Positions 27,309-29,545 of a stretch of DNA of 64,000 bases are shown here, piece after piece. Under the pieces are notes generated by a model that was not told the origin of the DNA, did not search any database, and was given only the letters and a program-made list of their open reading frames with translations. A program made the position numbers and the translations under genes. The first letter of the stretch is position 1; every line of letters starts with the position of its first letter. Source of the DNA: Fluviicola sp. XM-24bin1 (GTDB taxonomy: Bacteria; Bacteroidota; Bacteroidia; Flavobacteriales_D; Crocinitomicaceae). The stretch spans positions 124,001 through 188,000 of the forward strand of contig QCWI01000006.1 of the NCBI GenBank assembly GCA_003149635.1, in the 5' to 3' direction.

Positions 27309-28292
27309 ATGAATCCTACTCTTGAGGCGAAAATCATTCAGAACACTGGAGCTAGCACGGTTATAAAAATTGAAAAAGTACAGTCGCTTTGGAGTGATTT
27401 TGGTGTTCTTGAACGGGTTTATCTGTCTGGATTTAAACAAGATTCTATTGTAATCAAGCGGATCAAACCGCCTACAGAATTGAATCATCCAAGAGGCTGG
27501 AATTCGGATGTTTCGGCGCAGCGAAAGTTGAAATCGTATGAGATTGAAAGGCATTGGTACGAAGAGTACGTGAATCAACTTCCTCCACAAATTAAAACAC
27601 CGAACTTCTTGTTTTATTTCGAATCGGATGACGAACGCGTGCTAGGGTTGGAAGATCTGAATGTAATCGGATTAAGTGCTAAATACAGCCATTCTAAACA
27701 ATGTTTTCGACATTGTTTAGAATGGCTTGCCAATTTTCATGCGTTTCACATTAATGATACCGGCAATGGTTTGTGGGAAGTGGGAACGTATTGGCACTTG
27801 GATACCCGCAAGGACGAATGGGAAGCCATGCAGTCTGGTGAATTGAAAAATGCGGCGTCGCAAATTGATTTCTATCTAAAAAGCTGTAACTATCAGACCT
27901 TAGTTCATGGGGATGCCAAACCGGCAAATTTTTGTTTTTCTCCTGATTTAAAAAAGGTTGCAGCCGTCGATTTTCAATACGTCGGTAAAGGTTGCGGGAT
28001 AAAAGATGTCATTTACCTGATGAGTAGTGCATTGATAGAAAACGAATTGTTTCGTCAAGATGAAATTATCATAAATGAATATTTTATTTTCTTGGAAAAA
28101 GCACTGCAACAATTCAGCAAAAATGACATCGATTTTGATGCGCTAAAAAAGGAATGGATGACATGTTATACGATTGCTTGGTCAGACTTTGATCGCTTTT
28201 TAAAAGGCTGGAATTCAAGTAATAGAAGAGTGAATGATTATATGGCCTTTCAAACGAAAGAGGCGTTGCGAAAGTTGAAAAATCTCAACTGA
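27309..28292 (+). CDS. Phosphotransferase-family (aminoglycoside/choline kinase-fold) protein
   Basis: The 327-residue protein has a small-molecule kinase fold, with VLGLEDL before the catalytic loop LVHGDAKPANFC (HGDxKxxN, about residues 198-209) and metal-binding AAVDFQYVG (Asp about 220). It resembles the ecdysteroid kinase-like/choline kinase group (PF02958-type) more than true aminoglycoside kinases. It probably phosphorylates a hydroxylated metabolite with ATP. It is a single gene with no close partners. The fold is well supported, the substrate is not. Confidence 0.85.
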   Translation: MNPTLEAKIIQNTGASTVIKIEKVQSLWSDFGVLERVYLSGFKQDSIVIKRIKPPTELNHPRGWNSDVSAQRKLKSYEIERHWYEEYVNQLPPQIKTPNFLFYFESDDERVLGLEDLNVIGLSAKYSHSKQCFRHCLEWLANFHAFHINDTGNGLWEVGTYWHLDTRKDEWEAMQSGELKNAASQIDFYLKSCNYQTLVHGDAKPANFCFSPDLKKVAAVDFQYVGKGCGIKDVIYLMSSALIENELFRQDEIIINEYFIFLEKALQQFSKNDIDFDALKKEWMTCYTIAWSDFDRFLKGWNSSNRRVNDYMAFQTKEALRKLKNLN

Positions 28293-28427
28293 AATTCTTT
28301 TTCCGAAGAGGGTGATTTTTACCGAAATAATTACTTGTACGCATCTTTTCGGGTATATGTGCGCATCTAGAATTAAAATTAAACCGTTATATTGGCGCGA
28401 ACTTCTTAAAGTATTTACTACTCACTG

Positions 28428-28683
28428 ATGAGAAAGATTGGCGTTCTTGTTCCACAATCAAAATCCTATCCAGGCATAGGTCGTGATTTCGTAAACGGCT
28501 TAAAATTGCAAGCTCCTGATGATATAAGTTTCAGTATTGGATATGACAGGTCGATTGGTTGCAGTAGATGTAAACTTGACAGAGAAGACAGTTGATGTGT
28601 CTAAGTTGGTGAACGGAGCTTACATTGTAAGAGTTGTAACGAACGAAGGACAAGAACTTGTCGGAACGATAAGAGTTCACTAG
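28428..28683 (+). pseudogene. Chimeric gene relic: start of an ABC substrate-binding-type protein joined to the end of a T9SS-cargo gene
   Basis: An ORF from ATG 28428 encodes RKIGVLVPQSKSYPGIGRDF, which looks like the N-terminus of a type I periplasmic (branched-chain amino-acid receptor-like) protein, then stops at 28595. From 28540 in the next frame, an uninterrupted 47-residue segment DMTGRLVAVDVNL up to GTIRVH (stop TAG 28681-28683) has the form of a T9SS type A sorting tail. The two parts meet near 28537-28540, where the frame changes. I read this as a deletion that fused two unrelated genes, leaving only the first 38 or so codons of one and the last 47 of the other. A terminator follows directly. 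Confidence 0.7.
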
Positions 28684-28703
28684 AATAACTCAATGATAAG
28701 AAG

Positions 28704-28734
28704 AAGCCCTGACGATTACGTCAGGGCTTTTTTT
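28704..28734 (+). terminator. Terminator after the chimeric relic
   Basis: The 11-bp perfect stem AAGCCCTGACG/CGTCAGGGCTT has an ATTA loop and a T7 tail. It lies between convergent units and overlaps the stop codon region of the DnaJ-like gene. Confidence 0.92.
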
Positions 28735-29545
28735 ATGTGCGTTCCTTCCAGTATTCGTAAGCTTCTTGTATTTGTTGGAATTTTTCTTTCGCCAATAATT
28801 GTTGTGCTTCCGACGCTTGTGAGAATCGATCTGGATGGTGCTGCTTCACAAGTTTTCGATAGGATGTTTTCAAGCTTTCTTCCGTTGGTGTTCCGCTTAT
28901 GTGAAGGATCTCTGCATACCTTTTAGCCTGATTAATGCTTCCTTTCTGGCTTCTCTTATTCGCTTCTTTCTGATTCTGTTGCTTGGTTTCGTGGTAGTTT
29001 TTGAATATGGATATGATGCGTTCTAGATTGGACGATGGTAGTTCCAATTTTCGATTGATAATTTCCAGAAATTGTAATTCCCGGGTAGAAAGTTTACCAT
29101 CCAACATTCCCAATCCAGTGAGGAAATAAACAACCTGAGATCGTTCCCCTTCAGTATGAAGGTTATTCCTTAGCCAAGATGAAACAGAATCAATTTGCAT
29201 TGGGTGGCGCATACTGAACAACAACGAATCACCAAAGTTGTAATTTGCTTTGCGAAAGTATCGATTGAAGTATTCGTTGATGAATCTTGTTTTATCTTTT
29301 GATCGCTGATAGTTCAGCAGAATCAATAATGAACCCAATGCTAAATACGCTTCGAGAAGATTATCTTCTGTAAGCTTTAAATTCGGTGGGTATATTCCTT
29401 TTCTCCACAATCGTGCATGTCTTGTTTTATAGATGTAAAGAATTAGTCCGCCTCCGAATGGGATGAAGAAAACCAATGCAACAACCCAAGCCGGCCAATC
29501 TTTGACAGGTTCGAAGTACGATAAAGGGAAGTTCAGGATCTGCAT
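28733..29545 (-). CDS. Membrane-anchored DnaJ-domain protein (DjlA-like)
   Basis: The 270-residue protein has one N-terminal membrane helix (about 18-38, with a proline- and glycine-rich turn). A central helical TerB-like region (about 60-185) includes GLGMLDGKLSTRELQFLE. A C-terminal J domain (about 205-270) carries the HPD motif in LVKQHHPDRFSQ. J domains stimulate DnaK ATPase; a membrane-tethered form resembles E. coli DjlA. The orientation is inferred. It converges on the relic and shares its terminator region. Confidence 0.85.
   Translation of the reverse strand: MQILNFPLSYFEPVKDWPAWVVALVFFIPFGGGLILYIYKTRHARLWRKGIYPPNLKLTEDNLLEAYLALGSLLILLNYQRSKDKTRFINEYFNRYFRKANYNFGDSLLFSMRHPMQIDSVSSWLRNNLHTEGERSQVVYFLTGLGMLDGKLSTRELQFLEIINRKLELPSSNLERIISIFKNYHETKQQNQKEANKRSQKGSINQAKRYAEILHISGTPTEESLKTSYRKLVKQHHPDRFSQASEAQQLLAKEKFQQIQEAYEYWKERT

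What the first reader, a model, noticed from the sequence alone, without database searches (positions are those of the whole stretch)
28428..28683. Chimeric relic: head of an ABC receptor gene fused out of frame to the tail of a T9SS cargo gene
The N-terminal part reads like a type I periplasmic receptor. After 28537-28540 the only open reading runs in another frame and reads like a T9SS type A sorting tail. This implies a deletion that removed most of two genes, once neighbours. The terminator after it belongs to the lost cargo gene. It marks a past rearrangement in an otherwise conserved region.
Basis: partly seen in the sequence, partly recalled or inferred. Interest (0 to 1): 0.6.

Follow-up and report, generated by a model that had tools for sequence, protein, structure and literature searches.

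The report
Scar of a large gene-loss deletion
About 260 bases that look like half a gene are the two stumps left when a deletion of roughly 7,000 bases removed most of two neighbouring genes that a close relative still carries intact, which is an ordinary but cleanly documented case of gene loss.

Summary
At 28428-28683 about 34-37 codons from the start of a Peripla_BP_6-type receptor gene run into the last 51 codons, stop and terminator of a T9SS cargo gene, in another frame. A close relative (G040) has the arrangement intact at the same locus: SAHH, kinase, a second T9SS cargo, collar protein, 381-aa receptor, 2087-aa HYR/T9SS cargo, DnaJ-like gene; 7,174 bp separate the points equivalent to the junction. 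G018 keeps a 1799-aa cargo with the same tail. G012 has a separate, older relic of a cargo tail there, with two in-frame stops and a different start. In the other 33 genus genomes held, no match reaches into the head. The rest of the receptor has no match elsewhere in the own genome. So the deletion hypothesis is supported, with corrections: the receptors have no leader and lie beside phage-tail-collar genes, so "ABC receptor" is unsupported; a collar gene was probably lost too; the junction lies at 28526-28539; and the locus is a repeated site of loss. It is ordinary pseudogenisation; reads could not be checked. The collar-receptor-giant-surface-protein gene set that was lost is the more interesting by-product.

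The parts
28293..28427 (+). Upstream region of the lost receptor gene (between kinase stop and receptor start)
   Evidence: Aligns collinearly with the kinase-to-collar gap of G018 (upstream alone: 10 of 1000 dinucleotide shuffles reach the score; upstream plus head: 2 of 1000). No significant match to four other stretches tested, two of G040 and one each of G006 and G012.
28428..28538 (+). 5' stump of a Peripla_BP_6-type receptor gene, about 34-37 codons
   Evidence: 55% identity to intact receptors of G040 and G043; same locus as the intact gene in G040.
28526..28539 (+). Breakpoint interval; at most 14 bases could be assigned to either parent (upper limit of a microhomology)
   Evidence: cargo homology begins at 28526-28528. 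Receptor homology is not traceable past 28539, because the following codon, Glu in 6 of 6 relatives aligned, is Gly here.
28528..28683 (+). 3' stump of a HYR/T9SS type A cargo gene: last 51 codons and stop
   Evidence: Por_Secre_tail above cut-off; 76% and 80% identity to the ends of the 1799-aa G018 and 2087-aa G040 genes.
28704..28733 (+). Hairpin terminator of the lost cargo gene
   Evidence: conserved in place after the intact cargo genes of G018 and G040. The scan flags it only in the minus direction; the plus-strand T run is read directly.
27309..28292 (+). Upstream flank: kinase-like gene (EcKL/APH)
   Evidence: beside the same locus in G040, G018 and G012.
28733..29545 (-). Downstream flank: gene with a DnaJ-like C-terminus
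   Evidence: the family name was read from the sequence (recalled motif), not from a library search.

Best explanation
This is a non-functional scar of a deletion of roughly 7 kb. The ancestor carried, between the kinase and the DnaJ-like gene, a Peripla_BP_6 receptor gene without a signal peptide and a giant HYR-repeat T9SS cargo gene, probably with a collar gene between or beside them. The deletion joined receptor codon ~34-37 to the cargo gene 51 codons before its stop, out of frame. It left the receptor's upstream region and start on one side and the cargo's sorting tail and terminator on the other. The fused 55-aa ORF lacks the receptor domain, and the sorting tail has no signal peptide or passenger (its first possible start is a TTG inside the tail), so neither product should work. 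Shown: both stumps, both intact parents in place in a relative, no match to the rest of the receptor elsewhere in the genome. Inferred: a single event (about 3 in 4), end-joining at a short repeat (at most 14 bases), recent age, loss of function. The confidence below is for the deletion scar, not for the single event.
For: G040 has NMT1-FeCh-SAHH-kinase-[428-aa T9SS cargo]-[188-aa collar]-[381-aa receptor]-[2087-aa cargo]-DnaJ in the window's gene order, with 31 bp between receptor and cargo, and 7,174 bp between the points equivalent to the junction. G018 has kinase-collar-[1799-aa cargo]-DnaJ with a 76% identical tail. Among 34 genus genomes searched (own included), the kinase was found in 21 and the DnaJ gene or a paralogue in 27; the two lie within 12 kb of each other in 4 (G000, G018, G040, G012), and a cargo tail, intact or relic, lies between them in 4 of 4. 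Full-length G040 receptor against the own genome at E up to 10: one match, the stump. In the tree of the DnaJ-like protein G000, G018 and G040 form a clade with G006 and G012 next. The 51 tail codons have no stop, and the window branch has 7 nonsynonymous and 5 synonymous changes against 5/9 and 5/7 on the other two branches, so little decay since the deletion.
Against: No reads and no second strain were available, so a chimeric assembly at 28526-28539 is not formally excluded. Three contig ends of the assembly fall in HYR genes (C4, C14, C15), so this gene type is hard to assemble here. No closely related full-length receptor defines the left parent: identity is 55% over ~34 residues, with dN 0.48 and saturated dS over 37 codons. 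The head alone has no Pfam or NCBIfam match. G040 has a second cargo and a collar gene between kinase and receptor that the window lacks, so one deletion alone does not turn a G040-like locus into the window's. The window's upstream region does not resemble the stretches of G040 tested.
Confidence: 0.92

Rival explanations
1. Assembly artefact: the genome still has the two genes and the assembler skipped ~7 kb.
For: The own genome has contig ends inside HYR genes, and reads were not available.
Against: The full-length G040 receptor matches only the stump in the 99.86% complete assembly, at E up to 10. The possible overlap is at most 14 bases, short for a repeat misjoin, and the assembler broke contigs at HYR repeats elsewhere (inference). 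The HYR gene most like the lost cargo (C15) has other neighbours and a different tail.
Confidence: 0.05
2. The 55-aa ORF is a functional small gene or leader peptide retained by selection.
For: Start codon and frame are intact over 55 codons.
Against: In the other 33 genus genomes no DNA match includes the head. Its last 18-21 codons are cargo-tail DNA read in the wrong frame, and its head is the first 34-37 codons of a receptor that has 348-381 aa in G040, G043, G010 and G006.
Confidence: 0.02
3. Stepwise decay, a variant of the deletion reading: the receptor was already broken in the common ancestor with G018, and a later deletion took the collar and cargo genes.
For: G018 has a degraded stretch resembling the receptor head at the equivalent place (upstream plus head: 2 of 1000 shuffles reach the score; head alone 16 of 1000) and a collar gene with two in-frame stops.
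Against: The window's head has an intact frame over 34-37 codons, while G018's has no ATG at the equivalent place. G040, sister to G018 in the gene tree (support 90/84), keeps an intact receptor.
Confidence: 0.2

Closest known systems
Bacterial pseudogene made by deletion between short repeats (chimeric gene remnant; recalled category)
   Same: Two gene stumps joined out of frame, terminator of the distal gene kept, flanking genes intact, intact parents in a relative.
   Different: Nothing in kind; the parents are unusual (receptor without signal peptide beside collar genes, HYR/T9SS cargo).
G012 relic at the same locus (L036:3741-3950, minus strand)
   Same: T9SS cargo tail relic between kinase and DnaJ gene.
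   Different: Older-looking (two in-frame stops), longer (reaches the YPNPT motif), other start, no receptor head seen in the three forward frames.
T9SS type A sorting domain (TIGR04183 / PF18962)
   Same: Tail passes both cut-offs.
   Different: No signal peptide, no passenger domain, first ~22 positions of the domain missing.
Peripla_BP_6 (PF13458)
   Same: The intact same-genus relatives pass its cut-off in 3 of 4 scanned (G040, G043, G010; G006 below it).
   Different: Only ~34-37 of ~380 codons are left; the relatives lack a leader before the domain.

Membership tests
T9SS cargo (type A) | C-terminal Por_Secre_tail domain above curated cut-off | tested here: met
   30.6 bits against 27; 31.6 against 23
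T9SS cargo (type A) | N-terminal signal peptide and passenger region in the same ORF | tested here: not met
   A TAA lies directly before 28528 in the tail frame; the ORF listed starts at TTG 28537, 48 aa. It is a remnant, not a cargo
Peripla_BP_6 receptor | Two-lobed binding domain of ~340 residues | tested here: not met
   34-37 residues left; 0 Pfam families for the head
ABC transporter substrate-binding protein (intact relatives) | Signal peptide before the domain | tested here: not met
   Pfam domain begins at residue 2-5, profile position 3-4, in G040, G043 and G010; alignment. No signal-peptide predictor was run
ABC transporter substrate-binding protein (intact relatives) | Permease and ATPase genes beside it | tested here: inconclusive
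   Nearest neighbours are collar genes; an exporter-type ABC gene (named by eye) lies farther off beside the NMT1-like gene in G010 and G040. No systematic search for permeases was made
Pseudogene by deletion | Intact parents in a relative at the same locus | tested here: met
   G040, L056
Pseudogene by deletion | Junction real in reads | not testable with these tools
   no reads held

The most novel reading that the evidence does not exclude
The scar marks loss of one unit of a so far unnamed Bacteroidota surface module: one or more phage-tail-collar proteins, a Peripla_BP_6 protein without signal peptide and with a conserved C-terminal GW..(A/S/P)Y.C (10 of 11 receptors read), in some genomes a formyltransferase-like protein, and a giant HYR/Ig-repeat surface protein, T9SS-sorted where its end could be read. 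The small genes would modify, deliver or cap the giant protein, and the module decays piecemeal once one part is lost (G018, G012, window).
Probability: 0.4. Interest if true: 0.55.

Novelty: new member of a known kind. Interest (0 to 1): 0.22.

Why it matters
As a scar it is ordinary: it documents gene loss with both parents identified in a relative and shows repeated loss at one surface-protein locus in a genus. It keeps annotators from calling a 55-aa gene or a T9SS cargo here. What was lost belongs to a recurrent gene set (collar and receptor neighbours on the same strand in 39 of 40 loci checked) for which the literature searches made here found no description.

Tried and rejected
Misplaced copy of the lost cargo: the own-genome HYR gene on C15 (72% over 459 residues of the G040 cargo) looked like a relocated or misassembled copy, but its neighbours and C-terminal tail differ, and a HYR gene cut by the start of C14 could be its other part. 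Rejected.

Lost collar gene elsewhere: one collar gene remains in the genome (C5:49850), but by eye it has a signal-peptide-like start and it has other neighbours. Rejected as the lost one.

Strong relaxation of selection on the tail: branch counts of 7/5, 5/9 and 5/7 (nonsynonymous/synonymous) are too few to show it. Pairwise dN/dS values point the same way (window-G040 0.13/0.99, window-G018 0.14/0.70, G040-G018 0.10/1.47).

Receptor relic in G018 from protein comparison alone: weak. The window head and G006 each gave a short match reached by 5 of 500 shuffles; G040 (270 of 500) and G043 (38 of 500) gave nothing, and their best alignments lay elsewhere. The DNA test with upstream region is better (0 of 500 base shuffles; 2 of 1000 dinucleotide shuffles).

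Literature: searches returned no papers. One search found 3, one search found 1, and one search found 9 with 8 listed; only these listings were seen and no paper was opened. None listed appeared, from title and abstract start, to describe the collar-receptor-T9SS set. The library holds open-licence papers only.

Full report
What is there. The stretch 28428-28683 lies between a kinase-like gene (27309-28292, plus strand) and a gene with a DnaJ-like C-terminus (28733-29545, minus strand). One frame starts at ATG 28428 and is open for 55 codons. A second frame carries 51 codons (from 28528, directly after a TAA) to a stop at 28681-28683 and reads as the end of a T9SS type A sorting domain, above the curated cut-offs of Pfam (30.6 against 27 bits) and NCBIfam (31.6 against 23 bits). 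The head has no Pfam or NCBIfam match by itself.

The head. As a 40-residue query against 60 genomes it matches 13 at E up to 10 (own genome included); the best others are intact same-genus ORFs of about 350-390 codons in G043 (1.4e-6), G040 (2.7e-6) and G006 (5.8e-5). Full-length relatives against Peripla_BP_6 (cut-off 31.7 bits): G040 102, G010 82, G043 49, G006 25, so 3 of 4 pass. A profile of six receptors plus the window stump matches solved substrate-binding proteins, best 4ey3 at 3.7e-27. In G040, G043 and G010 the Pfam match begins at residue 2-5 and profile position 3-4, so there is no leader before the domain (alignment; no signal-peptide predictor was run).

The intact parents. A DNA search of 40 relatives found the tail and the downstream gene in G018. 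There the kinase stop and the tail are about 6.3 kb apart, against 0.24 kb in the window. G018 has a 1799-aa ORF with HYR repeats and a Por_Secre_tail; its last 51 residues are 76% identical to the window tail. G040 has the complete set: NMT1-like, ferrochelatase, SAHH, kinase, a 428-aa T9SS cargo, a 188-aa collar protein, the 381-aa receptor, a 2087-aa HYR/T9SS cargo whose tail is 80% identical, and the DnaJ-like gene (names of the flanking enzymes are by eye). Between the points equivalent to the junction lie 7,174 bp. The terminator hairpin after the relic is present after both intact cargo genes.

The junction. Identity to the cargo genes starts at 28526-28528. The receptor reading is traceable at most to 28539, because the next codon is Glu in 6 of 6 relatives and Gly in the window. 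Up to 14 bases could belong to either side, which would fit end-joining at a short repeat, but the true left parent is unknown, so this is only an upper limit.

Is it shared or an artefact? In all 34 genus genomes held (own included), 6 have any match to 28428-28690 at E up to 0.01. Apart from the own genome, the strong ones are the tails of G018 and G040 (79-80% over 166 bases, starting at 28520); the matches in G047 (two), G017 and G003 cover 23-45 bases. One of the G047 matches starts at 28523 and so covers the junction interval, but no match starts before 28520, so none includes the receptor head. In the own genome the full G040 receptor finds only the stump, at E up to 10. The G040 cargo finds 46 places there, the relic being one of them, because HYR and sorting-tail genes are many; the nearest (C15) has other neighbours and another tail. 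Contig ends of this assembly fall in HYR genes (C4, C14, C15), so the assembler broke there. Reads were not available.

A repeatedly damaged locus. Among the 34 genus genomes the kinase was found in 21 and the DnaJ gene (paralogues counted) in 27, at E up to 1e-20; they are neighbours (within 12 kb) in 4: window, G018, G040, G012. All four have a cargo tail in between. In G012 it is a relic with two in-frame stops that starts further upstream (at the YPNPT motif, recalled as typical of this domain), so it is a separate event. G018's collar gene has two in-frame stops, and in front of it lies a degraded stretch resembling the receptor head and its upstream region (2 of 1000 dinucleotide shuffles reach the score; upstream alone 10, head alone 16). 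The same upstream region showed no significant match to two stretches of G040 or one each of G006 and G012. This suggests the order kinase-receptor-collar-cargo in the window's lineage, so one deletion could have taken receptor, collar and cargo together. G043 likewise has the receptor before the collars, although collar before receptor is commoner (18 of the 19 loci with a collar). A tree of the DnaJ-like protein, made from the best-matching 17 of the 27 genomes with a match, puts G000, G018 and G040 together (97/93) with G006 and then G012 outside.

Age. The tail frame has no stop in 51 codons. Window-specific changes are 7 nonsynonymous and 5 synonymous, against 5/9 in G040 and 5/7 in G018, with 8 three-state columns left out. 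This hints at slight relaxation at most and is too little to date; the deletion looks recent relative to the split of these species. The head is far more diverged from G040 (dN 0.48, dS saturated, 37 codons), in line with the 23-30% identity of the other full-length receptors to that of G040.

What the lost genes were. The receptor profile matched 21 of 399 genomes of the order at E up to 1e-10, one of them the window stump; six of the 20 others had gone into the profile. In those 20 a collar gene lies on the same strand beside the receptor in 19, all but G006. In a phylum sample 22 of 395 genomes matched at E up to 1e-25; of the 20 loci returned, 20 have a collar neighbour. The background rate of collar neighbours was not measured. 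In five 13-kb stretches from other genera of the same family (chosen from the 20; ORFs of 150 aa or more listed by script), an ORF of over 1,200 aa follows the receptor in 5 of 5, and a formyltransferase-like gene (PF00551 and PF02911) lies between in 3 of 5. Whether those giants are T9SS cargo was mostly not testable, because they run to the edge of the stretch: in L182 an 810-aa ORF after the receptor ends in a Por_Secre_tail, while the 1437-aa one next to it is cut and its weak match to that model is not at an end. The function is unknown to me, and the literature searches made found no description.

Verdict. It is a deletion scar, not a gene, with both parents identified in a relative. Interest as a scar is low; the gene set it belonged to is the lead worth following.

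Noticed in passing
L090-L109, L186-L205, L181-L185 (related genomes): Peripla_BP_6 genes without a leader sit beside phage-tail-collar (PF07484) genes on the same strand in 39 of 40 loci checked, with a formyltransferase-like gene after the receptor in 3 of 5 stretches read and a giant ORF in 5 of 5: a recurrent Bacteroidota gene set.
   Followed up: partly
L036:3741-3950, minus strand (G012): Separate, older-looking relic of a T9SS cargo tail with two in-frame stops at the same locus.
   Followed up: yes
L035:2577-3450 (G018): Collar pseudogene with two in-frame stops, preceded by a degraded receptor-head-like stretch, while the giant cargo gene behind it is intact.
   Followed up: partly
window 27687-27727: Palindrome inside the kinase-like gene (88% self-complementary over 41 bases); its only own-genome match in the locus DNA search was to itself.
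   Followed up: no
G000:C15 right end and G000:C14 left end (L081, L082): Two contig ends each cut a HYR-repeat gene, in orientations that would let them be one large T9SS cargo gene.
   Followed up: no
G000:C6:199611, C6:136567, C5:58435 (minus): Terminator-like sequence resembling the one after the relic (92-94% over 33-37 bases) recurs at three other places in the genome.
   Followed up: no
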